Of a stretch of 64,000 nucleotides of DNA, positions 19,620-52,351 are shown piece after piece (within the stretch, counting starts at the first letter, position 1; the number at the start of each line of letters is the position of its first letter). This stretch comes from Primulina eburnea (Eukaryota > Streptophyta > Magnoliopsida > Lamiales > Gesneriaceae). The notes beneath the pieces were generated by a model. It was not told the origin of the DNA. It searched no databases and saw nothing but the letters and a program-made list of their open reading frames with translations. The position numbers and the translations under genes are program-made. The stretch spans positions 8,006,885 to 8,070,884 of the forward strand of contig NC_133102.1 of NCBI RefSeq assembly GCF_022965805.1, in the 5' to 3' direction.

Positions 19620-22600
19620 CTAAAATAAATCAATTAAACCAAGAATATTTCGAAAATAAGAAAACTTAGCCTCGGGTAATGGTTTTGTGAAGATGTCAGC
19701 TGCTTGCTGTTCAGTTGAAATATATTCTAGTCGAATATCCTTCTTTAACGCATGATCCCTGATGAAGTGATGCCTGACATCTATATGCTTGGTCCTTGAG
19801 TGAAGAACTGGATTGTAAGTGATGGAAATTGTGCTGGTATTATCACAGAATATGGGCGATTCAGTTGATGTTACTCCATCATCCTTCAGTTGTTGCTGAA
19901 TCCAGATCAGTTGTGCACAACAACTACCAGCAGCAAGATATTCTGCTTCTGTTGTTGAGGTAGCTATGGATGTCTGCTTCTTGCTGAACCAAGAGATCAG
20001 TCTGTCTCCTAAGAACTAACAAGATCCACTTGAACTTTTGCGATCAAGCTTAAATCCTGCATAATTTGCATCTGAGTATCCAACTAAATTGAATGTGGAG
20101 TCTTTGGAATACCATAGCCCAACATTTTGCGTGTCCTTAAGATATCTCAGAATTCTTTTAGCAGCTGAGAAATATGACTGCTTAGGGTTTGCTTGAAATC
20201 TGGCACACATACAGACAGCAAAACAATATCAGGACGACTGGCTGTTAGGTATAACAATGAACCTATTAACCCTCTATACAATGTCGCCTCCACTGATATT
20301 CCCCCTTCGTCAGTGTCTAGTTTAACTGATGAGCACATGGGAGTTGTTGCAGCTGAACATGATTCCATACCAAATTTCTTTAGCAACTCCTTTGTATATT
20401 TGTTTGACTAATGAATATACCAGTTTCCAGTTGCTTCACTTGCAGTCCAAGAAAGAATGTCAGTTCACCCATCATGCTCATTTCAAACTTATCCTGCTTT
20501 AACTTAGCAAACTTTTCGCACAATTTGGGGTTAGTTGACCCAAAAATTATATCATCCACATAAATTTGAACTAGTAGAATATGATTATTTTTAGTAAATT
20601 TAAACAAGGTCTTATCAACTGATCCGAGTGTAAAGTCATGATCAGTTAGGAATTTTGAAAGAGTTTCATGCCAAGCCCTGGGAGCTTGTTTAAGACCATA
20701 TAATGCTTTGTTCAAATAGTATACATAATCAGGAAATTTGTGGTTTATAAAACCTGGAGGTTGTTCAACATATACTTCTTCTTGTAACTGACCATTTAGG
20801 AATGCACTCTTCACATCCATCTGGTAAACTTTGAAGTTTTTGTGAGATGCATATGCAAGAAATATTCTGATTGCTTCCAATCTTGCAACTGGAGCATACG
20901 TCTCATCGTAGTCAATTTCTTCTTCTTGCCTATATCCTTGTGCTACTAGTCTTGCTTTGTTGCGTATAACTGAACCATCCTCGTTTAGTTTATTCCTGTA
21001 CACCCATTTTGTACCTATAATGGTTTTTGAAGTTGGTCTTGGAACTAAGTTCCAGACGTTATTGTGAGTGAACTGATTCAGCTCTTCTTGCATAGCATTT
21101 ACCCAGTTAGGATCAGCAAGAGCTTCATCAGTTTTCTTTGGTTCCAGTTGTGAAACAAAGGCTGAATGAATAAATAAATTTAACATTTGATTGCGAGTTC
21201 TTACTGGATCAGATAGATTTCCTATTACCAGATGTGGTGGATGTGATTTTCTCCATCTGTACTCTGCATTTGTTTCGTCAGCAACTGCTTCAGTTGGTAA
21301 CTGAGTGCAGTTTCAGCTTCAGTTGATGCCTCGTTAGCTGGTATTTGAATGTTATCAGTTTGCTTTAATAACTAATTGTCATCATTGACTTCCTGCTCAT
21401 TTAATTGATCCAATATTTCTGGTTCTGGTGTTTGAAAGATGTCTTGATTGTTATGACTTTCTTCTTTGTCATCATCTTCCAAACTGATATCTGTAAATCG
21501 ATCAGCTAGCTCAACTTGATCAGTTGGCTTATCAGTTAGTACAATTTCATCAAAATCAACATGCGCATATTCTTCAACATTTAAAGTTTTCTTATTAAAG
21601 ACTCTATAAGCTATACTAACTGATGAATATCCAAGGAAAATTCCTTCTGCAGATTTGGCATCAAATGCTTTTAAGTAATTTTTACCATTATCATGAATAA
21701 AGCATCTACAGCCGAATATTTTGAAATAAGTGATTATACTTTTTCTTCCATGCCAGATCTCATATGGTGTTTTCATATGATTCTTATTAATCATTGATCT
21801 GTTCTGAGTATAACATGCAGTGTTTACTGCCTCTGCCCAAAATCTTTGAGAAATGCCAGAATCAGCAAGCATTGTTCTAGCAGCTTCTTTAAGAGTCCGA
21901 TTTCTTCTCTCAGCTACACCGTTTTGCTAAGGAGTTCTTGCTGCTGAGAGCTCATGATTGATTCCAGCATTTTCTAGAAAACTTGAAAGTGTTTGATGGA
22001 TGAATTCAGTTCCTCGATCAGATCTGATTCGATCAATCCCAACTGATTTTTCATTTAAAAGTTTTTTGAAGAGTTTAATCAGTTGTGCAGCCGTGTGGTC
22101 TTTGGATTTGAGAAATATAACCCAAGTAAATCTTGAAAAATCATCTACAACCACCAAGGTGTATTTCATTCCCCCTAAGCTCATGACTGGTATTGGACCG
22201 AAGAGATCCATGTGCAATAGTTCTAAGCACCGGGATGAAGATTTACAGCCCTTGTTTTTGAAAGAAGATCGTACTTGTTTTCCATACTGACATGCTAAGC
22301 AAAGTTTTTCTTTTGAAAAATTTATTTTGGGCAAACCAGTTACAAGTTCATGTTTACTCAGATAAGCAATGGATTTAAAGTTTAAATGATTTAACCTTTT
22401 ATGCCACAACCAGTTTTGAGATGATTTTGAAGCAATGAAGCAGACTGGTGCATGAGGCTGTTCATTCCAACTGACTTTATATGTGTTTCCACATCGTTTG
22501 CCAGTTAGTATGATTTCATCAGTTGATGTTTTAACTAAGAATGAGTTTTTATCAAATTGTACCGAGAATGCATTGTCGCATAACTGACTGATACTAATCA

Positions 22601-22646
22601 AGTTATACTTCAGATTCTCTACTAATAAAACATCTTTAATAGTAAA
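19620..22646 (-). pseudogene. Copia pol, part 2: integrase, reverse transcriptase, RNase H
   Basis: Reading right to left: linker (NLKYNLISISQLCDN), GAG-pre-integrase (LWHKRLNHLNFKSI, CLACQYGKQ), integrase core (LLHMDLFGP, DDFSRFTWV, IRSDRGTEF), a TAG at 21927 inside the ARTP-QNG motif, then RT ([54 protein letters not shown] at about 20550) and RNase H ending QAADIFTKPLPE at about 19640. Frames change at about 21280, 20390 and 20200 and several stops occur, so the gene is dead. It continues upstream across the gypsy1 insertion at 33253-33470. Confidence 0.93.
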
Positions 22647-23290
22647 GGTACTGTAACGAACCGTATTCTACACTACTTAAAATTTGCGGAAGAATTAAAA
22701 ATTTTCTTAGACATAAAATAACATTCAAAGTTTGCCATAAAAATATCCCAACCAAGTCCCCCATAAGACATGGCGGTTCAAAGTACTACAATAAAATTTG
22801 CTCACAAAAGTTTTGCTCAAAATATTTCCCTCGAACCAAGAAATCAGAGTTAATTAACATTTGCGTAAAAACATAAACTTTGCGGTCCTCGGGTTAGCCT
22901 CCCGCTCAGTCCAAGCCTGCCCCTTGGTCATCACCTCCTGTCTCCTCAACATAGTCACCTGCATCGATCAAGTCTAGTGAGTCTAAAGACTCAACACGTA
23001 TAAACTGGAATAACGAGTACTACATATTAAGGTCGCATGCAACTTTAAAATAGGACATACATAATTTGAAACTTGAACTTGTGCATTAAAACTTGAACAT
23101 ACGTACATACGTACTCCGACGTGCCATAACTTAAACTTCCATAAACATACTGCATACGTAAACATACATAACTTCATCATTTTGCGTAGAGGATGTTTCA
23201 AAGCAAGTGACCCATACATAATAAACGCCTGATCAGACATACCACAGTACTGGGCTGACAGGGACGTATCCACTGTCGCATACATGAGAT

Positions 23291-23433
23291 CCCCGTTCAT
23301 AATTTAACGGGCTGGTTGGTCCCCGTTCATAATTTAACGCTTTCCAACCACGATCTAACCCGTTCATAATTTAACGGGGCGGAGAGGTCCTCGGCCACGT
23401 TCACCGACTTCCAAACCCATTCATAATTTGGTC
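23291..23433. repeat. Hairpin array in gypsy1 LTR
   Basis: Three copies of CCCGTTCATAATTTAACG(GG) at 23292, 23332 and 23359 and a decayed fourth at 23416. The first and third can form a stem of CCCGTT with AACGGG around a short loop. Same array at 31049-31191 in the other LTR. Confidence 0.85.
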
Positions 23434-23724
23434 ACAAGTCAATTAGCATACCTCAAAAACTTAAACATATTTTCTCTGCACGTCATACATACTTACTTGG
23501 CGTTGAGGGATTCGTTGGACTTCGACTGGGGCCGTTGCTGCAACTTACTAACGTGAATTTCATACTTAACTTGCATTGCTTAGACATAGAAAACACATGC
23601 TTACTCTCAAGCTCAATCATACCTTAGGACCTTCTACGATTTGCCACGACACGCCCTTAATAATCCTTGCACTAACCCATAACATCAAACTTAAAATGAA
23701 CTTACAAATATTTCCCAAAACAAG

Positions 23725-24064
23725 GGTACACGGACCCCGTGTTTGGGTCCGGGAGAGGGTCCGTGTACATACTGCCTAGAGTGTGTCGGGAAACGGAAGG
23801 GGCACGGACCCCGTGCTCGGGTCCGGATGGGGGTCCGTGTAGACTCTGGAAGAAGACATTGAAAGGAAGCAAAGGCACGGACCCCGTGTCAGGGTCTGGG
23901 TAAGGGTCCGTGTAGATACTGGAAAAAGACACTAAGTGAAACCCAAAGGCACGGACCCCGTGCCCTCATCCGTGTAAGGGTCCGTGCTGTCTCGCAAAAT
24001 TGACACTGAAGGAATAACAAAGGCACGGACCCCGTGCCCGGGTCCGTGTTTGGGTCCGTGTTCG
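23725..24064. repeat. Five-unit GC-rich palindromic array in gypsy1 LTR
   Basis: About 74-bp units, each beginning CACGGACCCCGTG (near palindrome) and followed by one or two GGGTCCG(TG) words. Starts at about 23728, 23803, 23876, 23950 and 24024. Same array at 31483-31822. Much more GC-rich than the rest of the LTR. Confidence 0.9.
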
Positions 24065-25503
24065 CTCGTTGCTTCGAAACCTGCGAGAAAACTTATGCAC
24101 CTGCCTAATCTCCCAATTGCACATCAATGGAACGAAATTTACCATCTTAGGACTCTTCTTAGAACACCATAACATTGCATCAAAACTTATACAAACACCT
24201 CACAATACGACGTCCACTATACTACACAACGCAACACCAATTATGCAATTAACCTCAATCCCTTTCCTACAACTTTAAACTCATTCAAACGCCTAACAAC
24301 TTGCATCAAAATCTTAAAAATACACCAAACCTCAAAACTAGCATGCTTATACGCAGCAACGATCGCCCGTCAGTTTCCAACGAAGCCTGCAACACTGAAA
24401 CTTCAAGAATTATCAAAATCTTAACTTTTCTGAAACGCAGTTTGAGCAGTCCCACGAAAAATGCCATAACTCACTCAATATTTGTCCAAAAATTTCGAAT
24501 CATATATCAAATCGAAGGTATCGAAATTTTCTAGCACTGGCGGATACACGTTTTTGCCGTTGAAAGTTTTCCCAAAATATGAACAGAAAAATCGCAGTTT
24601 TGACATGAACAGTAAAAAACGAGTTTTTGATCTAAAAATTTTCCTTCGAAATTGATCCGATTCATGATCCGCTCAAACTACTATCATCATACATAACTTT
24701 TACGCATAAAAATCGACACAACGCATAATATGACTTGATCGACACAGCAAGAACAGAGTATACGTGCCTTTTTGATGATAACGTTACCGAAAGGCGACAC
24801 CGAAGCGGAGATAGGAGCGAGGTTGATCCGGGACGAACGTGGCACCGTTACTCTTGAATAAAACTGACCGAAATCTTGCTGGAATTTGAAGGGAAGGGGG
24901 CGGCTACTCTAGGGGAATAAGAACCCTAATCTTTCTCTCAAAAAAAATAATAAAACTTGAATGAATTGTTGTGTGTGTGTTTAGGCGTGTATTACTGTGT
25001 GTAAAAGTGTGTTTGTGTGTGTGAGGCGTGTGTTTTAATTAATTAAAAGACTAACTTTTGGTTTACTAAAATAATTGTCTACTAATTAAAACACTAACTC
25101 ACACTCAACTTTTTAAATAAAACTCTATAATTAAAATATAACACACCATATTAGACTTTAAAAGTTCTAAAATCAAAAACTCACAAAATAATTAAATTTA
25201 GGATTCAAAAATGCTAACACTCACTAAATTATTTAAAATGCCCCCAAACTCAACTTAAAATAAAATACCATATCTAAAATTGCCAAAAATCGTCACCGGG
25301 TCTTTTCCTCACTCCCACCTCGAATGATCGCCTGAAACATGAGACTCGAAAGACATTTTAACGTGCATCACATAAACATAAATAATTTAAAACAATGCAT
25401 TTAAATAAATCATGCATCACCGAAACTCATTTAAAATTAATTTAAATGATTTAATAATTAAATGAATGCATGGGTTATACGTGTATTAAATTTGGGCACT
25501 ACA

Positions 25504-25517: not shown

Positions 25518-25564
25518 TATAAAAATTTCGTCCTCGAAATTAAGTCTTACCGAACAATTCCGGG

Positions 25565-28500
25565 TAGCGAAGTCTCATATCTATCTCTGACTCCCAAGTG
25601 GCCTCTTCCACTGATTGGTTTAACCACCGAACTTTGACTAGCTTAGTCACTTTGTTCCGAAGCCTGTGCTCCTGTCTGTCTAGGATTTAGACTGGTTTCT
25701 CCTCATAAGACAGGTCTGGAGTCAACTGTAACGGCTCATAACTCAGCACATGAGAGGGATTAGCCAAATATTTTCTCAACATCGAGACATGGAACACATT
25801 GTGCACCCCGGCCAGATTCGGCGGAAGGGCTACACGATAAGCTAGCGTCCCAACTCTGTCCAAGATTTCAAACGGTCCAATAAACCTCGGACTCAACTTG
25901 CCTCTCTTTCCAAATCTCATAACACCCTTCATAGGTGCTATCTTGATAAAAACGTGATCTCCTACGGCAAACTCGAGATCTCTCCTCCTTTTATCTGCAT
26001 AGCTCTTCTGTCGGCTCTGGGCGGTCTTCATTCTGTCACGAATCTTGACCACCACGTCTGCAGTCTGCTGAACTATTTCTGGACCAAGTTCTGTCCTCTC
26101 ACCAACTTCATCCCAATGAACTGGTGATCTGCACTTCCTCCCGTACAACGCCTCATAGGGAGCCATACCAATAGATGCTTGGAAGCTGTTGTTGTATGTG
26201 AACTCCACTAGAGGTAGTCTACATTCCCAAGTTCCTTGAAAATCAATTATGCACGCCCTTAGCAAGTCCTCTAAAACCTGAATCACTCGCTCAGACTGGC
26301 CATCTGTCTGCGGGTGAAAAGCTGTACTGAAAAGCAACTTCGTCCCCATGGCTGCATGTAAGCTCTTCCAGAAGGACGATGTAAACCTCGGGTCCCTGTC
26401 GGACACAATAGAGACTGGAAATCCATGCAAACGAACTATCTCTCTGAGATAAAGCTCCGCATACTGCGTCATAGAGAAAGTCGTCTTCACTGGCAGAAAA
26501 TGCGCTGACTTAGTGAGTCGGTCCACTATAACCCAAATGGAATTCGATCCTCTGACTGATCTCGGCAACCCAACAACAAAATCCATAGTAATGTTCTCCC
26601 ACTTCCACTCGGGGATGGGGAGTGACTTTACCAACCCTGCTGGTCTCTGATGTTCAGCTTTTACTTGCTGACAAGTGAGACATTCTGATACGAACCTACG
26701 GATGTCTCGCTTCATCCCTGGCCACCAAAACAATAACTGAAGGTCTTTGTACATCTTGGTGCCTCCTGGGTGAATGGAATACGGAGATGCGTGTGCCTCT
26801 GTCAAAATATCCTGTCTGATCGAACCAACACTAGGCACCCACATTCTACCTCTGTATCTCACAATGCCGTCTGAAACTATGTACAGCACACTGCCCTTGG
26901 CTTCGTCTTTCAGTCTCCATTTCTGTAACTGCTCATCTGAAGACTGACCTGCTCGGATTCGGTCTAGCAAACCAGATTTGACTGTCAGATTAGACAGCCT
27001 AGGAGCCTTGCCATCACGATAAATCTTTAGCCCAAACTTCTGAATCTCCGACTGTAGTGGTCTCTGAGCTGTCAACTGAGCTATCACTGCCACTTTTCTG
27101 CTCAACGCGTCTGCCACGACGTTAGCTTTTCCCGGATGATAGCTAATCTCGCAATCATAATATTTCACAAGTTCCAACCACCGTCTCTGCCTCATATTCA
27201 GCTCTCTCTGCGTGAAGAAGTATTTGAGACTCTTGTGATCGGTGAAAATCTGACATTTCTCGCCGTATAGATAGTGTCTCCAAATTTTCAGTGCGAAGAC
27301 AACGGCGGCTAACTCAAGATCGTGAGTCGGGTAATTCTTCTCATGCACCTTTAACTGTCTGGAAGCATAAGCTATAACTCGACCCTGTTGCATCAACACT
27401 GCGCCTAATCCGAGCTTAGATGCATCGGTATAAAGCACAAACTCACCTTGCCCTGTTGGCATGGCTAGCACTGGTGCCGAAATAAGAGCTTGCTTCAACG
27501 TGTCGAAGCTCTTCTGGCATTCTTCACTCCACACAAACTTGGCATTCTTCTTGGTGAGTGAAGTGAGTGGTACTGCTATAGATGAAAATCCTCGAATGAA
27601 CTTACGGTAGTAACCGGCTAAACCCAAAAAGCTGCGGATTTCTGATGCGTTCTTTGGCTCAACCCATTCCTTAACGGCTGCTACTTTCGATGGGTCCACC
27701 TCAATACCACTGCTGGATACTATATGCCCCAAAAATGCAACTTTCTGCAGCCAAAATTCACACTTACTGAATTTCGCAAATAACTTGCGACTCTGCAAGG
27801 TCTGCAAAACTGTCCTCAAATGCTGGTTGTGCTCCTCATGGCTCTTCGAGTAAATAAGAATGTCGTCAATGAATACTATGACGAATTGATCGAGGAACGG
27901 CTGAAATACTCGGTTCATGAGGTCCATGAAAATCGCTGGAGCATTTTTCAATCCAAATGGCATCACCAAGAACTCGTAATGCCCATATCTGGTCCTGAAA
28001 GCTGTCTTGTGGACATCTGCATCCTTCACTTTCAGCTGATGGTACCCTGATCGAAGATCTATCTTAGAGAACACGGTGGCTCCCTGCAATTGATCGAACA
28101 AGTCTTCGATTCTAGGCAAAGGGTATTTGTTCTTGATTGTTACCTTGTTCAGCTCACGGTAATCGATGCACAGTCTCATGCTCCCATCCTTCTTCTTCAC
28201 AAAAAGCACTGGTGCGCCCCACGGTGAGAAACTAGGGCGGATAAACCCTTTGTCGAGGAGCTCCTGAATCTGCTGTTTGAGCTCTAACATCTCAGCTGGA
28301 GCTAATCTGTATGGCGCCTTGGAGATTGGCGCTGTGCCTGGCACGAGATCGATTGCAAACTCCACCTCTCTCTCTGGTGGAAGACCGGTGACGTCATCAG
28401 GAAAGACGTCTGGAAATTCTTTGACTACTGGCACCTCTGATAAGGATGGAGTGGACACGTCAGGTGCTGAAATAATACTAGCCAAAAAGGCCTGGCATCC

Positions 28501-28919
28501 CTTGGAGATCAAACTCCTCGCCTGCATGCATGAAATCATGCGAGGAAAGCTTCTCCATCTGGCTGTCTCAAAAAGAAATTGCTCCATGCCCGACGGTCTA
28601 ACTAAAACTGACCTCTTCTGAAAATCTATCAGAACTCTATTCTTAGTCAGCCAGTCCATGCCCAAGATAATGTCGAATTCTGGCATCGGCAATATGATTA
28701 AATCTGCATACACTAGGTGGCCATGCAGTTCTAGGTCGATATCTCTGACCACACTGGTAGCTAACAGCTCTTCCCCTGATGGGACTACTACCGAAAAATT
28801 CACGTCTAGGCCGATGGACTTGAGGTCTAAATGATTGGCAAACGTCTCTGATATGAAGGAGTGAGTGGCTCCTGAGTCTATCAACGCGGTTGTGGATAGT
28901 CTCTTAATGAAAATGTTTC
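25565..28919 (-). pseudogene. gypsy1 pol: protease, RT, RNase H, integrase; stop before chromodomain
   Basis: Open for more than 1065 codons to a TAA at 25687-25689. Domains in order from the protease DSGATHSF: aspartic protease (residues ~1-90); RT (~190-350) with LCIDYRELN, the catalytic FIDDILIYS near 340; RNase H with [12 protein letters not shown] and FTDHKSL; integrase with the HHCC zinc region (ending [12 protein letters not shown]), DFVVGLP, SDRDPRF and [12 protein letters not shown]; then [10 protein letters not shown] and [11 protein letters not shown]. The frame continues after the stop with ILDRQEHRLRNK ... EEATWE ... YPELF, the Tekay chromodomain, to about 25565. The stop looks like a single CAA-to-TAA change. 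The upstream junction with gag runs through a candidate intron (28920-29099); the pol frame has no proper start of its own. Confidence 0.9.
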
Positions 28920-29099
28920 CTGAGACGCGTTAGCACAACACAAACTAACTTATATCTCAAAATTTATACCATAAACCTTAAGCACAATAGAACTCAATAA
29001 CCTTAGGTACCCAAAGTATTAATAGCACGCTAATAATCCCAAGAAGAAAAATTCCACATGCAAGACAATATAATACCGAGCTTAGGTAGAAAAGTTTAC
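28920..29099 (-). other. Candidate intron between gag and pol of gypsy1
   Basis: 180 bp on the minus strand beginning GTAAAC after ..ACTG and ending CGTCTCAG before GAAACATTTTC. It is AT-rich compared with flanking coding sequence and carries a CTAAC branch-like motif near the 3' end. Removing it joins gag to protease in phase (..TLLTG | [16 protein letters not shown]..), the arrangement seen without interruption in related elements such as gypsy2. Unspliced, Gag gains about 35 hydrophobic residues and ends at a TAA (28978-28980). Splicing is inferred, not shown. Confidence 0.7.
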
Positions 29100-30174
29100 C
29101 AGTCAGTAGGGTGGTGTCTGGGTCCGCCTCCTGTGCATGCATGGCAAATACTCTGCCCTGGGTTGGTTGCTTCCACTGTGGGCACTCCTTCAGCATATGA
29201 TCTATAGCTCCACACTTGAAGCACCTGCCTGATCCATACAAGCACTGTCCCGGGTGCTGACGATTGCATTTAGGACACACGGGGAAGGCAACGGGCTTCT
29301 GAGGCGCCCCTTGCTGCTGAACTGGACCCTTGCCCTTAGGCGGTCCATGATATGGCTTCTTCGCTGGCGGTCCCTGAAACGGCCTCTTAAACTGAGGCCT
29401 CTGATTCTGCTGCTGCGGTGGAGCCTGGTAGGGCCTCTTGCCCTGCCTATCTGCCTCAATATCTCGCTGGTCCTGCTCTGCCGCCAATGCTCTAGATACG
29501 GCGACTGCATAAGAAGTGGGACCAGCTACTCTCACATCACGGCGCAGGATCGGCCGCAGTCCATTCAGAAAATGCCGCAACTTTGCTTGGGCATCGTTCG
29601 CAATGAGGGGCACGAAGTGACACCCCCTCTCAAACCTTCTCACAAACTCTGCTACGCTACTATCTCCTTGCCGCAGCGTCATGAACTCGTTGGTGAGTCG
29701 GGTTCGTACTTCCTCAGTGAAGTACTTGGAGTAGAAAACCTCTTTAAAACCATTCCAAGGCAGCACCTGTAAATTGACTGCCACTGACGCACTCTCCCAC
29801 CATAGTCTGGCGTCTCCAGTTAATAAGAAAATGGCACAACGTACCCTATCAGCATCTGCCAGCTCCATAAAGTCGAAAATCACTTCGATGGACTTGATCC
29901 ACCCTTCAGCTATCATCGGGTCAGTGGTACCCGCAAACTCCTTCGGACTCATCCTCCGGAACCTCTCATATACCGCCTCAGGTCTAGGCCTCTCCTCGGG
30001 GCCTACAGCAGTCTGGTTCCTCGCAAACTGCGCGAAGAACTGCGTCATGCCTGCAAGCATCTGCGCCTGCATATCTGGAGGTGGTGGTGGAGGTGGAGGA
30101 TTGGCTCTTTCCTCCTCTCGGTGCTCCCTGTCCTCAGTCCTATCTTCCTGGTTAACCATACGTCTAGGAGGCAT
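29100..30174 (-). CDS. gypsy1 Gag (upstream part of gag-pol)
   Basis: Best start is the ATG at 30174 (MPPRRMVNQEDRTEDR). An acidic, proline-rich N-terminus (eight prolines in a row) precedes a retrotransposon Gag core (PKEFAGTTDPMIAEGWIKS, LLTGDARLWWESAS, F..FYSKYFTEEVR, LRQGDSSVAEFVRRFERG), then a basic Gln/Pro-rich stretch and a zinc knuckle CFKCGAIDHMLKEC. A second Cys cluster (CPKCNRQHPGQC) sits just before it. It is open without stops up to the candidate intron; if the intron is kept, the frame runs to 28978. Gag packages the element RNA into virus-like particles. Confidence 0.88.
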
Positions 30175-30328: not shown

Positions 30329-30397
30329 AGACTTGAGGTGTGACTTCGAGAGCTTCTTGCGACTGGCAGTAGGCGTAACCCTTTACAAGAACACCGC

Positions 30398-30409
30398 TCT
30401 GATACCAAC
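30398..30409 (-). other. gypsy1 primer-binding site
   Basis: Minus strand TTGGTATCAGAGC next to the end of the 5' LTR, complementary to initiator-Met tRNA. Confidence 0.9.
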
Positions 30410-33247
30410 TGTAACGAACCGTATTCTACACTACTTAAAATTTGCGGAAGAATTAAAAATTTTCTTAGACATAAAATAACATTCAAAGTTTGCCATAAAA
30501 ATATCCCAACCAAATCCCCCATAGGACATGGCGGTTCAAAGTACTACAATAAAATTTGCTCACAAAAGTTTTGCTCAAAGTATTTCCCTCGAACCAAGAA
30601 ATCAGAGTTAATTAACATTTGCGTAAAAACATAAACTTTGCGGTCCTCGGGTTAGCCTCCCGCTCAGTCCAAGCCTGCCCCTTGGTCATCACCTCCTGTC
30701 TCCTCAACATAGTCACCTGCATCGATCAAGTCTAGTGAGTCTAAAGACTCAACACGTATAAACTGGAATAACGAGTACTACATATTAAGGTCGCATGCAA
30801 CTTTAAAATAGGACATACATAATTTGAAACTTGAACTTGTGCATTAAAACTTGAACATACGTACATACGTACTCCGACGTGCCATAACTTAAACTTCCAT
30901 AAACATACTGCATACGTAAACATACATAACTTCATCATTTTGCGTAGAGGATGTTTCAAAGCAAGTGACCCATACATAATAAACGCCTGATCAGACATAC
31001 CACAGTACTGGGCTGACAGGGACGTATCCACTGTCGCATACATGAGATCCCCGTTCATAATTTAACGGGCTGGTTGGTCCCCGTTCATAATTTAACGCTT
31101 TCCAACCACGATCTAACCCGTTCATAATTTAACGGGGCGGAGAGGTCCTCGGCCACGTTCACCGACTTCCAAACCCATTCATAATTTGGTCACAAGTCAA
31201 TTAGCATACCTCAAAAACTTAAACATATTTTCTCTGCACGTCATACATACTTACTTGGCGTTGAGGGATTCGTTGGACTTCGACTGGGGCCGTTGCTGCA
31301 ACTTACTAACGTGAATTTCATACTTAACTTGCATTGCTTAGACATAGAAAACACATGCTTACTCTCAAGCTCAATCATACCTTAGGACCTTCTACGATTT
31401 GCCACGACACGCCCTTAATAATCCTTGCACTAACCCATAACATCAAACTTAAAATGAACTTACAAATATTTCCCAAAACAAGGGTACACGGACCCCGTGT
31501 TTGGGTCCGGGAGAGGGTCCGTGTACATACTGCCTAGAGTGTGTCGGGAAACGGAAGGGGCACGGACCCCGTGCTCGGGTCCGGATGGGGGTCCGTGTAG
31601 ACTCTGGAAGAAGACATTGAAAGGAAGCAAAGGCACGGACCCCGTGTCAGGGTCTGGGTAAGGGTCCGTGTAGATACTGGAAAAAGACACTAAGTGAAAC
31701 CCAAAGGCACGGACCCCGTGCCCTCATCCGTGTAAGGGTCCGTGCTGTCTCGCAAAATTGACACTGAAGGAATAACAAAGGCACGGACCCCGTGCCCGGG
31801 TCCGTGTTTGGGTCCGTGTTCGCTCGTTGCTTCGAAACCTGCGAGAAAACTTATGCACCTGCCTAATCTCCCAATTGCACATCAATGGAACGAAATTTAC
31901 CATCTTAGGACTCTTCTTAGAACACCATAACATTGCATCAAAACTTATACAAACACCTCACAATACGACGTCCACTATACTACACAACGCAACACCAATT
32001 ATGCAATTAACCTCAATCCCTTTCCTACAACTTTAAACTCATTCAAACGCCTTAACAACTTGCATCAAAATCTTAAAAATACACCAAACCTCAAAACTAG
32101 CATGCTTATACGCAGCAACGATCGCCCGTCAGTTTCCAACGAAGCCTGCAACACTGAAACTTCAAGAATTATCAAAATCTTAACTTTTCTGAAACGCAGT
32201 TTGAGCAGTCCCACGAAAAATGCCATAACTCACTCAATATTTGTCCAAAAATTTCGAATCATATATCAAATCGAAGGTATCGAAAAGTTACACGTTTTTG
32301 CCGTTGAAAGTTTTCCCAAAATATGAACAGAAAAATCGCAGTTTTGACATGAACAGTAAAAAACGAGTTTTTGATCTAAAAATTTTCCTTCGAAATTGAT
32401 CCGATTCATGATCCGCTCAAACTACTATCATCATACATAACTTTTACGCATAAAAATCGACACAACGCATAATATGACTTGATCGACACAGCAAGAACAG
32501 AGTATACGTGCCTTTTTGATGATAACGTTACCGAAAGGCGACACCGAAGCGGAGATAGGAGCGAGGTTGATCCGGGACGAACGTGGCACCGTTACTCTTG
32601 AATAAAACTGACCGAAATCTTGCTGGAATTTGAAGGGAAGGGGGCGGCTACTCTAGGGGAATAAGAACCGTAATCTTTCTCTCAAAAAAAATAATAAAAC
32701 TTGAATGAATTGTTGTGTGTGTGTTTAGGCGTGTATTACTGTGTGTAAAAGTGTGTTTGTGTGTGTGAGGCGTGTGTTTTAATTAATTAAAAGACTAACT
32801 TTTGGTTTACTAAAATAATTGTCTACTAATTAAAACACTAACTCACACTCAACTTTTTAAATAAAACTCTATAATTAAAATATAACACACCATATTAGAC
32901 TTTAAAAGTTCTAAAATCAAAAACTCACAAAATAATTAAATTTAGGATTCAAAAATGCTAACACTCACTAAATTATTTAAAATGCCCCCAAACTCAACTT
33001 AAAATAAAATACCATATCGAAAATTGCCAAAAATCGTCACCGGGTCTTTTCCTCACTCCCGCCTCGAATGATCGCCTGAAACATGAGACTCGAAAGACAT
33101 TTTAACGTGCATCACATAAACATAAATAATTTAAAACAATGCATTTAAATAAATCATGCATCGCCAAAACTCATTTAAAATTAATTTAAATGATTTAATA
33201 ATTAAATGAATGCATGGGTTATACGTGTATTAAATTTGGGCACTACA
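30410..33247 (-). repeat. gypsy1 5' LTR (right copy)
   Basis: 2838 bp. Nearly identical to 22652-25503; main difference is a 15-bp deletion near 32284 relative to the left copy. Drives transcription leftward. Small frames inside it (for example 30741-31058) recur in both LTRs and are not genes. Confidence 0.95.
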
Positions 33248-33252
33248 GTTAC

Positions 33253-33470
33253 CATGGATAATCTTACTCTTACCCACGATTTTACCTTTGAAATTATCTC
33301 CGAAACTGATGTTTGGACCACTATATTTAATCAGTTGAGATAGCATACTTGCATCTCCTGTCATATGTCGTGAGCAACCGCTATCCAAATACCATATTGA
33401 ATTTTTATTTGTACCTGTTACCTTCAAGCACACACATAATTTGATTTGGTACCCATATCTATTTGGGTCC
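33253..33470 (-). pseudogene. Copia pol, part 1: protease region
   Basis: Encodes the Ty1/copia protease motif WYLDSGCSRHMTGD and the following FGDN.KGKIVGKSKI, then stops at the gypsy1 insertion; the continuation is at 22646. The active-site Asp is present. Confidence 0.88.
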
Positions 33471-33477
33471 AAAGCTT

Positions 33478-35406
33478 ATTAGTCCCTTTGGAACCCATAC
33501 TTGGATTAGTCTAACTGACTTTCCAGTAGCTGTATTCCAAATGGGTTTTCTCGATTTTTGTGTGCTTGGTGAATAGTGTACAGATGATACAGTATGTATT
33601 TTAGCTTGGTTCAACTGATTGTTTAGTCTGTATCTTTTCTGGACTGGTTTGCAGTTATAATAATTTGAATAATTCTTGCTAAATCTTTTTGATGAATGAT
33701 TTTCTGAATTAGTAGAGATTTTTGGACTGTAATCGACTCCATGTCTTCTGGCCTTATACATATTCTCAATAGGTTTTTCATTCAGTTTGCTGGGCTCAAA
33801 TTTCTCTTGTTCTACTGTTAATCTGACAAATTGAATGTACTTCCCTTTGTTCATTGTCAGCTTTGGTTGAGTATCATTTGAAAACGTTTCTCCTTGATTA
33901 TTGAACCCTAAACTAGTTTTATCAGAAACTGATTTTTGTGAATTATGCATCTCATTCAATGCAGTAGATGATTTATTCCAAGATTTAATGAGTTCATTTT
34001 GTTTTGAATTTTCAAGGATCAATTTCTGGATCAGTGACTGATCTTTCTTTCTCTCTGCTTTTAGCTCAGCAATTTCCCTTTCTAGACTCAACCTATCAAC
34101 TGATTCATCAGTTTTGGTTTTGTTGTCCATGGGATCATTTTGCTTTGACTTTATTTCCTCAAATGATGATGCAAGTTTCTGGTACTCATTTACCATTTCA
34201 TGCAATGTTAAAATGAGTTCTTCTCGTGTAAAATCAGTTGAACTAAAATCAAATACCTGTTGACTTGTAGATTCTGCTTCAGTATCATTTGCCATTAGAC
34301 ATTTGACTTCCTCTTCATCACTTGAGCTATATGAGCTTTCTGGTTCTGATTCGTCGCTATCAGTTTCTGCCCATTTGGATTTGTTCTCTTCAGCTAATAG
34401 AACTTCGTGTTTCTTTCTGTAGGTTTTCTTATCATCTCTGGGTCTTCTCTTATGCTCATATGGTTTCTTTCTTCTGTCAGTTGATCCTTGACTGTCCTTT
34501 TTATGTTTAGGACAGTCAGCAATGTAATGACCTGTTTTGCCACAATTGTAGCAAGCATTTGTTTCTTCTTTGGAATTATTTCTCTGGTATTTCTTCTGAA
34601 GATTTCCTTGGTTCTTTCTCATGAACATCCCAAACTTTTTGATGAATAATGACATAGCATCATTGCTTAACTGATCAGCAGATTTCTCAACTGAACTAGT
34701 TGGTTCAGTTCTGACAGCTGCTAAAGCAGTTGTAGTTGTAGGAGTAGATGGTTCTCCTTCTCTGTTTTGCAATTCAAATTCATAAGCTTTTAAATCAGCA
34801 AATAATTCATGAAGTTCGATCTGGTTCAAGTCTTTAGATTCTCTCATAGCCATTGTTTTGACATCTCATTCCTTTGGAAGACCTCTCATCACTTTTAGTG
34901 TAACCTCTTTGTTGGTATACACTTTTCCGAGTGCATTTAATTCATTCACAATACTGCTCACCCTTTCATCATACTCGTTCATTGATTCTCCAACCTTCAT
35001 TTTGATATTGTCAAATTTCTGGACAGCAACTGAGAGTTTATTTTCTTTTGTTTGGTCATTTCCTTCATATAACTGAATCAACTTCTAATTTCTTTTGCTG
35101 TTTTGCACATCTTTATTTTGTTGAAGGTTGCTTTGTCCAGTGTTTCGTATAGAGTATCTTTGGCCACATTGTCAAGATTAGCTTTCCTTTTGTCTTCAGT
35201 TTTCCACTCTTCTCTGGGCTTTTGAATTCTCTTTGGTGCCCCTTCAGTTATGCAATTGTTGTGTTTGCTTTTAGAATCTTCATGGGCCAGTCTGTTATGA
35301 CATACCACATATCATCATTTTGTGCAGCTAAGTGAGCCTGCATTCTGATTTTTCAGTCATCGAAATCTTCTCTTGAGAACATAGGAATTTTATTGAATGA
35401 AGTCAT
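33478..35406 (-). pseudogene. Copia gag
   Basis: Starts MTSFNKIPMFSREDFDD at 35406, followed by a TGA in place of the expected Trp. The UBN2-type core (LAAQNDDMWYVITD, DTLYETLDKATFNKI, MIQLYEGNDQTKENKLSVAVQKF, LKVMRGLP) is spread over two frames. A zinc knuckle CYNCGKTGHYIADC lies at about 34545-34505, followed by an acidic Ser-rich part and a coiled coil (LEREIAELKAERKKDQSLIQK). Two stops and at least two frame changes make it non-functional. Confidence 0.9.
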
Positions 35407-42550: not shown

Positions 42551-45500
42551 TCATGCATCAACAACAATTTCAACTCCTGCAACATCATCCCGAACCCAAA
42601 CGACTTCTTCATGTTCATTCTCGTCTTCAGGATAACAAATAAAACTTTGAAGATATGTATCAACATCTGCCAGAGGTTGCATTTTATACTTTGCTCGTGC
42701 ATCGGTGGTGATAATTACATGCCAATTACAATCAACTGGATCTTCCACATAAAAAGCTTGCATGGCTTGGGATGCTAATATATAAGGCTCGTTGTGACGC
42801 TTCACATTTGTAAAATTGACCAACATAAAACCATCATCATCCAGTTTTAGTCGTTTGCCTTTGGAGACCCAATCACATTCAAATAAAACAACTCTTCGAC
42901 CTCCCTCATACTCTAACTCAATCACATTTTGCAAAATCCCGTAATAATCAAGTTCACTTGATACTGGATTCTGATCTCTTATACTCGAATAACTTGAAGT
43001 GGTAGCCCGAACAATTACACCACAATTCTGAGTTTTTCTCTTGCGTTCCACTTCTTTTGTATGAAGCCTAAATCCATTGGAAATGAATTTTTCATATCGT
43101 ATCCCTATGAAATTTGGGCCTCTGGCGAGTGATTTCAAATCATTTGATATTGGATCATCTTGTGAAGGATTTGTATTTTCAATCTATCACACAAGGAAAA
43201 ATTAATAAATTATGTATAAAAATCATAATATATAACCTTAATGAGAATTACAACAACAACTTACATGTGTGGCAAACCAAGAGGCAAAAGACTCACTGTG
43301 CATACGTTCAATTTGGTGTGGTGGAAGACCTGAATGAGTAAGATTCAAAATCTGACGGTGTTCACTGCAAATTAAGAACGGTGATTTGATAAACAATGAT
43401 GATTATATATTTAAACACAATGAAATATATAATCACATACTCTATATACGATTGTACTTGATGACAGTTGAATAACACGTATTGATGTGCCTTCTTCAAT
43501 GTCTTGTCATCAAACTTAGTTGCAATGGCCTTTCCAAGTGCATAACCAGAGGCCGTAAACACATCCAATGTGAATGTTGAGCCGATAGTTGTCTCATCAT
43601 TTCTTGTTGATTGATTGAATTTTGTCTCTACATAATCAGTTAAATAAAGAGAACAGAATGTCAAACATTCCTCAGCCAAATACCCTTCAGCAATAGATCC
43701 TTCTGGCCTACTTCTATTTCGAACATACGACTTCAATGTCCCCAAGTACCTTATACCAAAAACATAAATTTTTTATTATTTATTGAAAATAATAATTTAA
43801 ATAAAACAATATCAATAATATTTGTTTTTACCTTTCAATTGGATACATCCAACGATAGTAAACTGGTCCAGCAAGTTTTATTTCAGTAGCCAAATGTACA
43901 GTCAAATGAATCATTATGTCAAAAAATGAGGGAGGAAAAATCTTCTCTAATGACAGAGGATCACCGCAATTTCTTTCCTTAGACGAACCACATCAGTAGG
44001 AGAAATTACTTTACAACATAGCTCTCTGAAATACCTACTCAATCTAATCAAAGGAGTCCGAACTGATTTAGACAAAGTTCTACGTAGTGCCACTGACAAC
44101 AACTGCTGCATCAAAATATGGTTGTCATGGCTTTTTAGACAAATTAATTTTGTCGGTTTCATTTGAACACACCGTGAAATGTTAGAAGCATAGCCATCTG
44201 GAACTTTAACTTTTTTCAAAACCTTGCAAAATGTGCCCTTCTCATTTTTGCCCATTGAATAACATGCTGGAGGCAGATAAACTCTACTTGGTCCTTTCTC
44301 AATAGGATGAAGTTCTGATCTTATTCCAATTTCTTGCAAATCAAGACGTGATTTAATATTATCTTTTGCTTTCCCTTCCATATTCAGCAGTGTCCCACAA
44401 ATTGATTCGCACACATTCTTCTCAATATGCATAAAATCAAGATTGTGGCATACCACATTATCTTTCCAATATGGTAAATCGAAGAAAATACTCAACTTTT
44501 TCCAATTGAATGGTAGTCCTGGATTATCATCAACTGTTTTTCCAAATTCAAATTAAAATTTTTCAACTCGTTGATCACTGAGTCTCCCAAAAGTATGGGT
44601 GATGGTCTTCCATACTCTTCTGTGCCATCAAAATGTTGAGCATCTTTGCGAAACTCATGATCACCATTCAAAAATTTGCGATGACCCATATAACAATAAA
44701 TTTTTTTCCATTTTTTAAACATCGTGAATGTGTAAATTTGTGGCACACTGGGCATGCAAATTTACCTTTGGTGCTCCATCCAGATAGGGTTGCATATCCA
44801 GGAAAATCACTTATAGTCACTAATGATGCGGCATTCAATTGAAAATTCTGCTTGGTTGATGCATCATATGTCTCCACTCCTACCTCCCAGAAATCCTTCA
44901 AATCTGCAACAAGGGGCTGCAAGTAGATGTCGATGTTATTTCCAGGAGAAGATGGACCAGGTATTAGCAATGATAATATAAAGTATGGTTGTTTCATACA
45001 CATCCATGGTGGAAGATTATAAGGCACTAAAATGACTGGCCACGTACTATGCGCCACACTCATATTTTTGAATGGATTAAATCCATCTGAAGCTAATCCT
45101 AGCCTTATGTTTCGGGGATCCTTTGCGAATTCAGGGTGGTTATGGTCAAATGTTTGCCAAGCTGGGGAATCAGCTGGGTGTCGCATGTAACCGTCTTTCG
45201 TGCGAGATTCAGAATGCCATCTCATATGGACTGCCGTTTTGCAAGACATGAACAAACGTTGTAACCTAGGCTTTATAGGAAAATACCATAAAACCTTGCG
45301 TGCAACTTTCCTCTTGTCGCCAATAGGATCATTTTCAGATGTTTCCCATCTAGGCTCGTTGCATGTTTTGCATCGAACTCGTTCTTCGTCCAACCTCCAG
45401 TATAAAGTGCAATCATTAGGACAAGCATCGATCTTTTCATAACCAAGTCCTAATTGCTTCATCAATTTCTCTGCTTCATAGTATGACTTTGGTAAATCTT

Positions 45501-46068
45501 TCATGGCATTTGGAAATGCTTCTCTCAACAAATCCAAAAGCATATCGAAGATTTTATTGGTAATTTTTCCAAGACATTTTAAGTGAAGCAAGCGAATGAT
45601 GAATGAAAGTTTTGAGAATTTCTTACATCCGGGATATAACTCTTTTTTTGAATCATCAATTAGTTTATAGAATTTCTCGGCCTCTCCGATTGGAATCTCT
45701 TTATCCTTTTCAAATCCTGTTGTATTGATCGTATCACCATAGTTTTGTGGGACCCCAAAAGCATCGTGAACTAATCCCTCCATATCATCTACATCATCAC
45801 GAGATGGAACAGAACTAGATATTGAAGATGCACTACATGATATCTCTCCATGAGCCACCCAGTGAGTATAACCTTTGATAAATCCATCAACCGTCAAATG
45901 ATCACAAGCATCCTCTCTTGAAACACATATGCCAATCTTACATCTTGCACAAAGACATGCAATCATTCCATTTATGTTTGCATTAGAAAATGCAAAATCT
46001 AAGAAACCCTCAAGTCCTTTCCTGTATTCCTTGGTTTGTCTCGGCAAAAGCATCCAACTTTTATCCAT
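42551..46068 (-). pseudogene. TNP2-like CACTA transposase
   Basis: Start at the ATG at 46068 (MDKSWMLLPRQTKEY). Order: Transpos_assoc domain with Cys/His motif (CLCARCKIGICVSREDACDHL), linker, Transposase_21 core (TLYWRLDEERVRCKTC, MRWHSESRTKDGYMRHPADSPAW, LGLASDGFNPF, YNLPPWMCMK, GVETYDA, FPGYATLSGW, CPVCH), then after a frameshift near 44715 YMGHRKFL..GHEFR-type sequence, and after another LPYWKDNVVCHNLDFMHIEKNV. DUF4218 follows (FPPSFFDIMIHLTVHLATEI ... YPIER|YLGTLKSYVRNRSRPEGS), split by an intron with clean GT/AG ends at 43750-43831. A short exon (QIERMHSESFASWF) lies at 43375-43264 and DUF4216 at 43183-42551. At least three frameshifts in the first long exon make it inactive. It would be the catalytic transposase that binds and cuts element ends. 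Confidence 0.9.
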
Positions 46069-46328: not shown

Positions 46329-47779
46329 TGTAGTGACCCGTTCCAGAATCACCTACTAATCAAAAACTAAGCATGCAATTAACCTAATCAATTATAATCA
46401 GAGATAACAGCGGAAATATGGCCAACAACAAATAGTTATACAACCCAATCGAAATCGAAGTCTAGACTAACTCAAAATGAAATATCCAGTACAACCATAT
46501 CGAATCAAATGGAAAACACTGAAAACTAAACCAACCAGCTACTCAACGTCCTCCTCCTGCTCCTCCTGAGCCATCCAACCTGAGGCCTGCCCCGTGGGAA
46601 TGGGGTGTCCAAGAATAAACAAAACCGAGGACGTGAGCGATAAGAACGCCCAGTACAAAAGTATGAGTATACAAACCTATAAGAAATGCACATGCTATGA
46701 TATGATACCAGGGTAGTCAAGAAACAGGAATCACAAAGGATCTCAAAATGCTCAGTATAGAGGCGCCAAGTGGATAGTGCCGCGCGGTCCAACCTCTGGG
46801 TCACTGCATCCACTACAAGACAGACGTGGACCTAAAATGTCCCGGACCACCGAAGCCCTCCCGACCCGTCGGCCACTGTGTACTCTCGGTGTCCATGCGT
46901 CCACAAGACAGGGCTGAGCGGCCCCAAGATATAGCTTATCTCGAAAGAGATACAGCTCAACAGTAAAGGCTATCTCGAAGGAGATACGGCTCAACATGAT
47001 ATGCAATATGCATCATAACTCGTGACATAATAGCATGCATCATATGACATATAACAATGCAGCAAATACTCATGCAACACATATAAGAATGTATACTCAA
47101 CCAGGATATCTCGGATAGTACTTTCGTACCTCTATCACAGCAAGCCTAGCCTTACGCAACACCGCTAATCAAGTCTAGCCCAAGCCTACGCATCAAAAGC
47201 ATACTCAATCAATACTACCATGCTCGACTAGCAAAACCAGTACTCCCTAGTACTACCAAAGGTTTAGGGTTTACCTTCGTCCGTCGACAGCCCTTTGATG
47301 TCGATTGCCTTGAAACTCAGGCGCCGCTACGCTACTACTCCTGGCAGCTCTTGGCTATCGCTCGACCAACAACTAACCCTAGAAACCTTCCAAATCCTCT
47401 CAACTATGAGGCAAAACTCAAGAAATTGGCAAGTCAAAATGAGGAAATCCGAGCACTATTTATAGGCCATGTTCGGATCCTCCGAACAACACTTCGGAAC
47501 GTCCGAACGCTACGTGTCCATTGGCTCTTGACAGCTCATGATCGGATCCTCCGATCATACACTTCGGACCGTCCGAACATGCATGGAAAATGACGTGTCG
47601 ATCAACACTTGACACCTATGATCGGATTCACCGAACTACACTTCGGATCGTCCGAACTCTTCGGTGCTTCCGAACCCTCTTCGGTCCGTCCGATCATGAC
47701 CATAGCCAAAATTACACCTTAAACCTTCTTAATCACCATTACTCCGTTAATTACCCAATTTGGAATTCGGGCTACTACA
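46329..47779 (-). repeat. gypsy2 3' LTR (left copy)
   Basis: Runs TGTAGTGACCCGTT ... GGGCTACTACA on the + strand. Contains the twin TATCTCGAAAGAGATA hairpins (46937-46952, 46971-46986) and the TTCGGA/TCCGAA array (about 47470-47695). Confidence 0.96.
47470..47695. repeat. TTCGGA/TCCGAA palindrome array in gypsy2 U3
   Basis: About ten inverted pairs such as TTCGGATCCTCCGAA, GATCGGATCCTCCGATC and TTCGGACCGTCCGAA, lying just upstream (in element sense) of the TATA box. Same array at 53591-53816. Confidence 0.85.
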
Positions 47780-50900: not shown

Positions 50901-52351
50901 CAGGCTTTCAGAGCAGATACCACTGGCATCGGAGGTCGCGCTCCCTCACCATAGAAAAACCAACTAGAGCTTTCAGTCGTACGAAACTGAACAAGCTTCT
51001 GGTAACAATCCACAGTAGCTCGGTAGGTAGTCAATAAGTCTATACCCAAGATACAATCAAAATCTTCCATCTCTAGGATCATAAGATTCGCAGTCAACTC
51101 GTTACCCTCAAAATCTAAAGGACAACCCATCACTAGACGCTTTGCTAACACCGAATGACCCATCGGAGTAGAAACAGAAAGAATGACGTCTAGAGAAACA
51201 TAGGGTAACCTATGACGCTTAACAAATCGTGCAGAAATGAAGGAATGAGAGGCTCCTGTATCAATAAGAACAAAAGCAGGAATACCGCATAAATGAAAAG
51301 TACCTGCTATGACTCTCTCCGTCTCATCTGCAGCCTGATCCTGGTTCAGCGCAAAAACCTGACCTTGGGCACGAGGTCGAAGATTCGAACTACCCACTGC
51401 CTGACCCTGCCTCCTCTGCTGAACAGTCGTCTGAGATCCAGAACCGGATCCTGCTCCACCTCGCAACTGAGGACAATTCTTCTTAATATGCCCCATCTCT
51501 CCGCACTGATAACAAGCTCCTGCGGCTACTCGACATTGCTCCGTTGGATGGTTCTTCCCACAATGCGCACAAGACTCCTTCTTCTTACCAAAGCGGAAAA
51601 CACCACTAGATCGAGATCCAGATCCAGAAGAAGATGAACCAGATTTCTTGAATGACTGAGATCGAGGCCTCAAAGTACTCGGAGGTCTAGAAGAAGAAAG
51701 AATAGCCCTACCACGCTGGAGACTGATCTCTGCCTGGCGACACCGGTTCACTAACCCATCATAAGAAGTAGGATTATCACAGACAGTGACTCGATCAAAG
51801 ATCTCCTGATTAAGGCCCTGGAGGAAATGATCATACTTGGCCTCAGAACTGCCACTGATATGAGGAGCGAAGGGTAACAACTCAAAGAATTTCTGCTGAT
51901 ACTCATCAACAGACATACTCCCCTGCTTAAGGTTCAGGAGCTCAATCGTCTTGGCCTGGCGAAGGGCTGGAGGAAAGTACAGCTGCATGAACGCTGCACG
52001 GAAATCGACCCAAGTCGCTCTACCCTGCAACTGAACTATCGGCGCAGAAGTCGATCGCCACCACCTGCGAGCACGGCCCTCGAGAAGAAAACTAAGGGTC
52101 TCCATCTTCTGCTCATCGGTGCACTGGAATGCGCGGAAACAACTCTCCATGCGCTCTAACCTATCCTCCGCATCATCGGGAGTCTCACCGCCAACTAAAG
52201 GCTTAGGCCCCATCTGCATGAAACGATGCATATCGAAACGCCTAGGACCATCCCGACGATGACGATGCTCATGATGACGTCTATGATCGTCCTGGTCACC
52301 CCATCGACCTACACTCCCCTGACTACTCCCGTCATCAAAATGGTCAGCCAT
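47930..52351 (-). CDS. gypsy2 Gag-Pol polyprotein with chromodomain
   Basis: Single open frame. Start chosen at [13 protein letters not shown] (52351) because the related gypsy4 begins at the same Met; 17 codons upstream are also open. Order: Gag core ([32 protein letters not shown]), zinc knuckle [14 protein letters not shown] (~300), protease [10 protein letters not shown] (~365), RT with LCIDYRQLN and FIDDILIYS (~720), RNase H ([23 protein letters not shown]), integrase (HHCC region ending [38 protein letters not shown]), [10 protein letters not shown], and a C-terminal chromodomain ([14 protein letters not shown] ... [12 protein letters not shown]). Catalytic residues look intact. No gag-pol intron, unlike gypsy1. 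Chromodomains of this clade are thought to steer integration to particular chromatin. Confidence 0.96.

What the first reader, a model, noticed from the sequence alone, without database searches (positions are those of the whole stretch)
28920..29099. Candidate spliceosomal intron between gag and pol of a Tekay-type gypsy element
Seen: gag and pol of gypsy1 are separated by 180 bp with GTAAAC...CTCAG borders, AT-rich sequence and a CTAAC motif near the 3' end. Removing it joins the codons exactly (TLLTG|NIFIKR...DSGATHSF), where the related gypsy2 has uninterrupted coding (AGTFHL...DTGASHSF). Without splicing, Gag ends inside the segment with about 35 mostly hydrophobic residues (LSSVLYCLACGIFLLGIISV and more). 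Known: Ogre elements of the Tat clade carry a partly spliced intron in gag-pol. I know of none in Tekay chromoviruses. Inference: splicing would set the Gag:Gag-Pol ratio, and retained-intron Gag may gain a membrane-seeking tail, although T-rich introns translate as hydrophobic by chance.
Basis: partly seen in the sequence, partly recalled or inferred. Interest (0 to 1): 0.87.

Follow-up and report, generated by a model that had tools for sequence, protein, structure and literature searches.

The report
Spliced intron in a plant chromovirus
A jumping gene in a plant genome carries an intron between its coat-protein gene and its enzyme genes, and other copies that lack this intron exactly from end to end indicate that it is spliced out in nature, which points to a splicing switch that I did not find described for this group of jumping genes.

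Summary
The 180-bp segment 29099-28920 (minus strand) of gypsy1 behaves as a spliceosomal intron. In the same genome its donor junction occurs 473 times and the exactly joined exons 24 times, with 0 in each reversed control; 21 of the 24 joined sites were verified with both flanks. Eight divergent copies have introns of 173-181 nt that do not keep frame, all ending in AG with CTAAC or CTAAT before it. Two further gag families have an intron at the same codon and phase (193-602 nt), also with exact empty copies. Pol is under purifying selection in intron-bearing copies.

The donor has a second candidate partner: an acceptor inside the LTR. Gene models in Primulina join gag to it, giving a short Gag with an acidic or glycine-rich tail, and the site is conserved. 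This distal splice is inferred, not shown. The membrane-tail idea is not supported as a general function. No RNA was examined. My paper searches listed no report of an intron in Tekay or other chromoviruses.

The parts
28920..29099 (-). Intron, 180 nt, GTAAAC...CTCAG, phase 1, between gag and protease
   Evidence: exact empty copies
29098..29099 (-). 5' splice site, ACTG|GTAAAC, inside the Gly codon GGT
28920..28921 (-). Near 3' splice site, GTCTCAG|GAAAC
   Evidence: AG in 8 of 8 divergent copies
28929..28933 (-). CTAAC, candidate branch site; CTAAC in 7 and CTAAT in 1 of 8 divergent copies; close to the acceptor for a plant branch site (recalled expectation)
29100..30174 (-). gag exon (ATG by reading the ORF; unspliced frame ends at 28978); capsid and zinc-knuckle domains
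25687..28919 (-). pol exon: protease, RT, RNase H, integrase zinc-binding and SH3 domains; ends in TAA 25689-25687 in this copy
25540..25686 (-). Chromodomain (PF00385) behind that stop
22652..25503 (-). 3' LTR (TG...CA)
30410..33247 (-). 5' LTR, 99.16% identical to the 3' LTR in the BLAST alignment
30396..30407 (-). Primer binding site TGGTATCAGAGC (tRNA-Met type, recalled)
22951..22999 (-). 49-nt LTR block with inverted repeat TGAGTC-TTTA-GACTCA, ending just past the far acceptor
22959..22960 (-). Candidate far 3' splice site, TTGATCGATGCAG|GTGACTATG
22906..22958 (-). Candidate LTR exon; with the Gly of gag reads GDYVEETGGDDQGAGLD and stop
51302..51304 (-). gypsy2: the matching Gly codon GGT (GCAG|GTACTT) in an uninterrupted gag-pol frame
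46586..46588 (-). gypsy2 3' LTR: first bases after GGGGCAG, where gene models of its family continue (read by hand)

Best explanation
The segment is a spliceosomal intron of a chromovirus LTR retrotransposon, removed by the host spliceosome from some transcripts. Unspliced RNA encodes Gag ending shortly inside the intron and serves as genome. RNA spliced at the near acceptor encodes Gag-Pol. Spliced RNA is sometimes reverse transcribed and integrated, which leaves exact intronless copies. SHOWN by genomic sequence: a homologous intron with conserved ends in many copies, length changes that do not keep frame, exact empty sites, selection on pol in intron-bearing copies. INFERRED: that the empty sites come from spliced RNA, that splicing is partial, and that it sets the Gag to Gag-Pol ratio (about 0.7). 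INFERRED, about 0.65: the same donor is also spliced to a conserved acceptor in the 3' LTR, removing all of pol and making a short Gag with an LTR-encoded tail; intronless relatives would rely on this splice. The confidence below is for the intron being real and spliced.
For: 473 donor junctions and 24 exact exon-exon junctions, reversed controls 0 and 0; 21 of 24 joined places have gag and pol meeting with gap 0. 30 of 30 distinct intron-bearing loci read (window copy included) keep GTAAA and CTCAG. Eight divergent copies: 173-181 nt, three length classes modulo 3, AG in 8 of 8, intron less conserved than adjoining pol in 6 of 8. Second family: GT in 19 of 20, AG in 15 of 17 located, 328-602 nt with 5, 4 and 8 in the three classes, and one exact empty site among intron-bearing relatives. 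Third family: 9 introns of 193-269 nt, two empty sites read of 12 places, 22 joined patterns, control 0. Pol differences at codon positions 1, 2, 3 in 29 intron-bearing copies: 131, 84, 826.
Against: No RNA was examined. The donor GTAAAC is not the best plant consensus and CTAAC lies close to the acceptor (recalled expectations). The first tree, with near-identical intron copies only, put intronless copies at the base, as if the segment were a recent gain; a wider sample mixed the states (9 changes on 65 tips), but that tree rests on 360 nt, its support was not examined, two outgroup rows lie on very long branches and are probably mis-cut, and the elements recombine. In two of eight divergent copies the intron is as conserved as pol or more so. 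GT in those eight is part of how they were found.
Confidence: 0.92

Rival explanations
1. The LTR 'acceptor exon' is not used in splicing: the conserved block is a promoter or RNA-end element, and gene predictors pick up a chance acceptor near it. The near intron stays real.
For: The block holds an inverted repeat and could lie at the transcription start or in R. Codon-position counts in the exon are mixed: pair differences at positions 1/2/3 are 22/24/45 in one class and 28/53/32 in the other. No gag-LTR fused copy was found for the one sequence searched. The acceptor scan found no such exon in L001-L005.
Against: The only match below E 0.05 between the gypsy1 LTR and the 53-62 kb region spans the acceptor. 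In 40 sampled sites 38 have a recognised acceptor, 36 of them GCAG, and GTG follows in 36 of 38; in the splice frame D+E is 31% and K+R 1%, against 11% and 14% in the next frame; the third frame gave only one peptide of 5 or more residues. Gene models in three Primulina species end there. A fused copy is not expected, since the spliced RNA would lack most of the 3' LTR. The Gly codon is GGT in six of six families.
Confidence: 0.35
2. The segment is a neutral intron, removed from nearly all RNA, with no role in the Gag to Gag-Pol ratio.
For: Its body changes faster than pol in 6 of 8 divergent copies. Intronless copies are themselves under purifying selection on pol, so the element can do without it.
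Against: Intron copies outnumber empty ones 473 to 24 in the window family at equal stringency, so unspliced RNA is what is mostly copied. Introns at this codon are found in three gag families.
Confidence: 0.3
3. gag and pol are separate ORFs and pol is reached by frameshift, read-through, reinitiation or an internal ribosome entry site; gene models and borders are chance.
For: Gag and pol lie in the same frame in the window copy.
Against: Four in-frame stops; frame relation differs among close copies; exact empty sites at the GT and AG borders.
Confidence: 0.03
4. The segment is a late insertion, such as a small DNA transposon, in otherwise normal elements.
For: Intronless copies exist, and in the first tree they were basal.
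Against: No target duplication beyond 1 nt, no inverted ends; an interruption at the same codon and phase in three gag families with different sequences and lengths.
Confidence: 0.03

Closest known systems
Ogre (Ty3/gypsy, Tat lineage) gag-pol intron
   Same: An intron between polyprotein ORFs spliced from a subset of transcripts to allow the whole polyprotein (PMC6317226, section 13, citing work I could not read).
   Different: Ogre is a non-chromovirus; its intron parts GAG-PROT from RT-RH-INT, about 274 bp; here the intron lies before protease in a chromodomain element, and a second acceptor in the LTR is proposed.
EVD/EVADE and other Ty1/copia short-GAG producers (BARE, Tyran, Varan)
   Same: A Gag-only messenger made by splicing (passages of PMC12786077, PMC7730604, PMC7765848).
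   Different: Those are Ty1/copia. In EVADE the splice removes the protease domain and makes a premature stop (PMC12786077 passage). Here the proposed far splice would use a conserved exon within the LTR.
Bianca (Ty1/copia) two-ORF layout
   Same: Two ORFs parted by a spacer of 172 bp on average (PMC6317226, section 13).
   Different: Different superfamily; that section reports splicing for Ogre, not for Bianca.
Tekay (Del) chromoviruses
   Same: Chromodomain, tRNA-Met type primer site, long LTRs.
   Different: Section 13 of PMC6317226 names only Bianca and Ogre as having ORFs parted by a spacer; this family has an intron.

Membership tests
Spliceosomal intron | GT...AG ends kept while the body varies | tested here: met
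   (AG lost in 2 of 17 in the second family)
Spliceosomal intron | Exact excision seen in related DNA | tested here: met
Spliceosomal intron | Spliced RNA | not testable with these tools
Chromovirus | Chromodomain after integrase | tested here: met
   25.8 bits against a cut-off of 25.1
Tekay clade | RT, RNase H and integrase grouping with named Tekay elements | not tested
Ogre | Tat lineage, additional RNase H domain, no chromodomain | tested here: not met
   chromodomain present; one RNase H region in the Pfam scan
Ogre-type gag-pol intron (mechanism) | Intron between polyprotein ORFs, spliced from part of the RNA | tested here: inconclusive
   intron and excision supported; partial splicing not tested
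Short-GAG producers | Spliced Gag-only RNA | tested here: inconclusive
   gene models and conserved sites only

The most novel reading that the evidence does not exclude
Tekay-type chromoviruses in both eudicots and monocots share one splice donor, hidden in a conserved Gly codon at the end of Gag. It is spliced to an exon encoded in the LTR to make Gag alone. One large lineage has a near acceptor as well, making an intron, so that three RNAs (unspliced, near-spliced, far-spliced) divide genome, Gag-Pol and Gag. Spliced RNA is packaged often enough to shed the intron repeatedly.
Probability: 0.5. Interest if true: 0.88.

Novelty: new variant of a known kind. Interest (0 to 1): 0.78.

Why it matters
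How a chromovirus with one gag-pol reading frame makes Gag in excess over Pol is an open question (recalled). An intron whose donor has two candidate acceptors is a concrete, testable answer for an abundant plant group. The exact intronless copies look like a natural record that spliced retrotransposon RNA is packaged, copied and integrated. If the LTR exon is used, an LTR codes for protein. It would also explain gag-like gene models with short odd tails in these genomes.

Tried and rejected
Retained-intron Gag as a membrane protein: unspliced tails are usually about 4 residues in the other two families, and from 19 to at least 40 residues (40 codons read, Gly counted) in eight divergent copies of this family, one of them with a different sequence that looks like a frame change. 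Rejected as general; within this family the first 17 residues are fairly alike, so it is not excluded there.

Recent gain of the segment: suggested by the first tree, which held only near-identical intron copies. Adding eight divergent ones mixed the states. Polarity inside the window family is not settled; in the second family loss is clear.

Homology of the window intron to third-family introns: global alignment z 1.1-4.1 against simple shuffles; weak, left open.

Codon-position test of selection on the LTR exon: inconclusive (an earlier parse mis-set two rows and is not used).

gag-LTR fused copies: 0 with up to 3 mismatches, one sequence tried. Viral contigs: no relatives. Acidic exon in L001-L005: none found by the scan used, which asked for [CT]AGGT.

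Full report
WHAT WAS CLAIMED AND WHAT IS THERE. The window holds a gypsy element on the minus strand with LTRs 25503-22652 and 33247-30410, 99.16% identical over the 2858-column alignment, so it is young. Its gag ORF (30231-28978) and pol ORF (28929-25687) are parted as described. The 180-nt segment is richer in T (43%) and A+T (66%) than any of 3952 windows of 180 nt in the flanking coding DNA (maxima 34% and 59%), has stops in all frames, a flanking repeat of 1 nt only and no inverted ends. Capsid, zinc knuckle, protease, RT, RNase H, integrase zinc-binding and SH3 domains are recognised, and a chromodomain follows a TAA that ends pol in this copy. The element is therefore a chromovirus.

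WHERE IT COMES FROM. The window lies at G000:C2:8006885-8070884 of an 812-Mb assembly. Four contig lengths of that assembly (C2, C5, C8, C17) equal those given for proteins named Primulina eburnea, so the host is probably that plant (inference).

INTRON COPIES AND EMPTY COPIES IN THE SAME FAMILY. A 27-nt pattern across the donor was found 473 times with up to 3 mismatches, and a 27-nt pattern of the two exon ends joined 24 times; the reversed controls gave 0 and 0. All 24 joined places were fetched. In 21 gag and pol meet with a gap of exactly 0; L085 gave no pol hit, L097 no gag hit, and L091 aligned only partly. The intron-bearing set of that call comprised 30 distinct loci, the window copy among them (7 duplicate rows set aside): 28 of 180 nt, one of 179, one of 181, all with GTAAAC or GTAAAT and CTCAG. 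These were the best of 40 scored places each and are close copies. The 21 intronless copies are 75-91% (gag) and 84-97% (pol) identical to the window copy.

DIVERGENT COPIES SHOW HOW IT EVOLVES. Eight intron-bearing copies taken from those with one mismatch in the donor pattern have introns of 173-181 nt, in all three length classes modulo 3, 77-98% identical to the window intron; the adjoining pol is 85-93% identical. The intron is the less conserved of the two in 6 of 8; in L152 it is better conserved and in L157 equal. All eight end in AG; CTAAC stands near the end in seven and CTAAT in one. GT in these eight is part of how they were found. On a tree of 360 nt of pol with 65 tips (43 with, 22 without), the state changes 9 times. 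Support values were not examined, two outgroup rows lie on very long branches and are probably mis-cut, and the elements recombine: the intron is 99-100% identical between copies whose gag is about 85% identical. An earlier tree of 51 tips without the divergent copies put the intronless copies at the base on pol (2 changes) and gave 4 changes on gag; it goes against repeated loss but held only near-identical intron copies.

OTHER FAMILIES. A search with the gag model P0122 scored 110 places of 34374 first-look candidates, 62-100% identical, most ending near the same residue. I fetched 20 chosen for spread. 19 of 20 carry GT in the same codon; exon 2 was located in 17 of these, with AG in 15; lengths are 328-602 nt, with 5, 4 and 8 in the three classes modulo 3; two had no exon 2 within reach, and one, L064, is an exact empty site. 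L064 has an open frame of 657 codons through the junction, is 90% (gag) and 92% (pol) identical to an intron-bearing copy, and its pol is 89-95% identical to other intron-bearing relatives, so here loss is clear. In a third family (gag model P0101; 150 scored of 28959) I fetched 12 places: 9 gave parsed introns of 193-269 nt; L124 and L125, picked for their long open frames, are empty sites (L124 read by eye in the printed sequence); L129 was not parsed. The joined pattern of that family occurs 22 times with up to 3 mismatches, control 0; these were not read one by one. The changing frame relation in the second family excludes read-through or a single frameshift as the common route to pol.

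POL IS UNDER SELECTION IN INTRON COPIES. Against the window copy, pol differences at codon positions 1, 2 and 3 are 131, 84 and 826 over 29 intron-bearing copies, and 419, 199 and 1962 over 21 intronless ones. Selection on a pol that cannot be reached without removing the segment speaks for splicing, although shared ancestry with intronless copies contributes.

THE SECOND ACCEPTOR. Two protein searches (best 120 listed of 198 and of 184) gave 185 distinct relatives, named as Primulina, Henckelia, Zingiber and Dorcoceras or unnamed. In 105 of the 185 the end of gag could be parsed: 48 run on into protease, 39 end within 70 residues, 18 do something else; 80 were not parsed. Several of the 39 do not read into the intron but end in short acidic tails, such as GDYVDEETGGGDQGAGLD. 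In the window a close match to that tail is encoded in both LTRs, directly after TTGATCGATGCAG. For P0122 the annotated tail EHVEQETGGAEL was found downstream of pol in its own element, after the same block. Tails of Henckelia, Zingiber and Dioscorea models look alike, but their DNA was not seen. Between the gypsy1 LTR and the 53-62 kb region, the only match with E below 0.05 is 49 nt (E 2.5e-10) spanning this acceptor; I take the 55-kb site for another LTR, untested. The block core occurs 7109 times in the genome, control 0. Forty sites, all plus-strand hits on C1 from the listed head of that result, were read: 38 had a recognised acceptor (36 GCAG, 2 GCAT), 36 of 38 had GTG after it. The frame set by the splice is acidic (38 peptides, D+E 31%, K+R 1%), unlike the next frame (33 peptides, 11%, 14%); the third gave one peptide of 5 or more residues.

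INTRONLESS ELEMENTS FIT TOO. gypsy2 has GGT at the matching codon, and gene models of its family end VIAGLRLDGS... (P0187, P0198, P0199), which reads by hand from its LTR after GGGGCAG in the sequence printed. A Dioscorea model named isoform X4 ends VVAGEDQG (P0271). The Gly codon is GGT in six of six element families compared, five of them uninterrupted there; L002 is a near copy of L001 and was not counted. By each element's own codon usage the chance is about 0.001; of 39 invariant columns downstream 2 keep an identical codon, and none of 6 Gly columns does (L004 and L005 are short, which limits the columns). A shared donor is likely, but the far splice itself is inferred: gene models are predictions, the codon-position test was inconclusive, and no fused copy was found.

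MECHANISM. I commit to this: the host spliceosome removes the intron from part of the RNA; unspliced RNA is genome and Gag messenger; near-spliced RNA makes Gag-Pol (0.92 that the intron is real and spliced; about 0.7 that partial splicing matters for the ratio). Far splicing to the LTR makes Gag alone (about 0.65).

PRIOR WORK. Neumann et al. 2019 (PMC6317226; passages and section 13 read) report two ORFs parted by a spacer for Bianca and Ogre, and cite Ogre splicing (that paper, PMC2596294, is not held). For short GAG I saw passages of PMC12786077, PMC7730604 and PMC7765848: the first describes EVADE and BARE1, and the third classed nearly all its GAG transcripts as Ty1/copia and found its single Ty3/gypsy one without an intron. 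Passages of PMC2829016 mention predicted env acceptors in BAGY2 and Athila. The listings of the searches (up to 20 titles each) showed no paper on an intron or LTR exon in Tekay or other chromoviruses; subscription papers are mostly not held.

Noticed in passing
window 20380-22667 and 33459-34865: ORFs on both sides of gypsy1 look like halves of one Ty1/copia element (by eye), so gypsy1 is nested in it; the 5-bp flanks of gypsy1 are GTAAC and GTACC, one mismatch.
   Followed up: partly
window 42551-46092: ORFs that look like a CACTA-type transposase region (by eye, recalled; no family search done).
   Followed up: no
L001-L005: Plant-type gypsy elements lie in contigs of bacterial genome assemblies, probably plant DNA contamination.
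   Followed up: partly
window 28400-29600 and copies L015-L044: The intron and its flanks are 99-100% identical between copies whose gag differs by about 15%: recombination between element lineages.
   Followed up: partly
proteins P0018, P0029, P0038 and others: Gag of the same type is known here mainly from Gesneriaceae and Zingiber officinale, about 50-56% identical; horizontal transfer or patchy sampling.
   Followed up: no
P0044 (unnamed assembly contig, 1146 nt): A gag ORF ending VITGEPVVQDQGQ, an exon-like and not intron-like tail, on a short contig: possibly a spliced cDNA.
   Followed up: no
window 55183 (minus strand): A third repeat with the same block and acceptor, reading GDINNYDVGGLDG; a similar site lies in L071.
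   Followed up: partly
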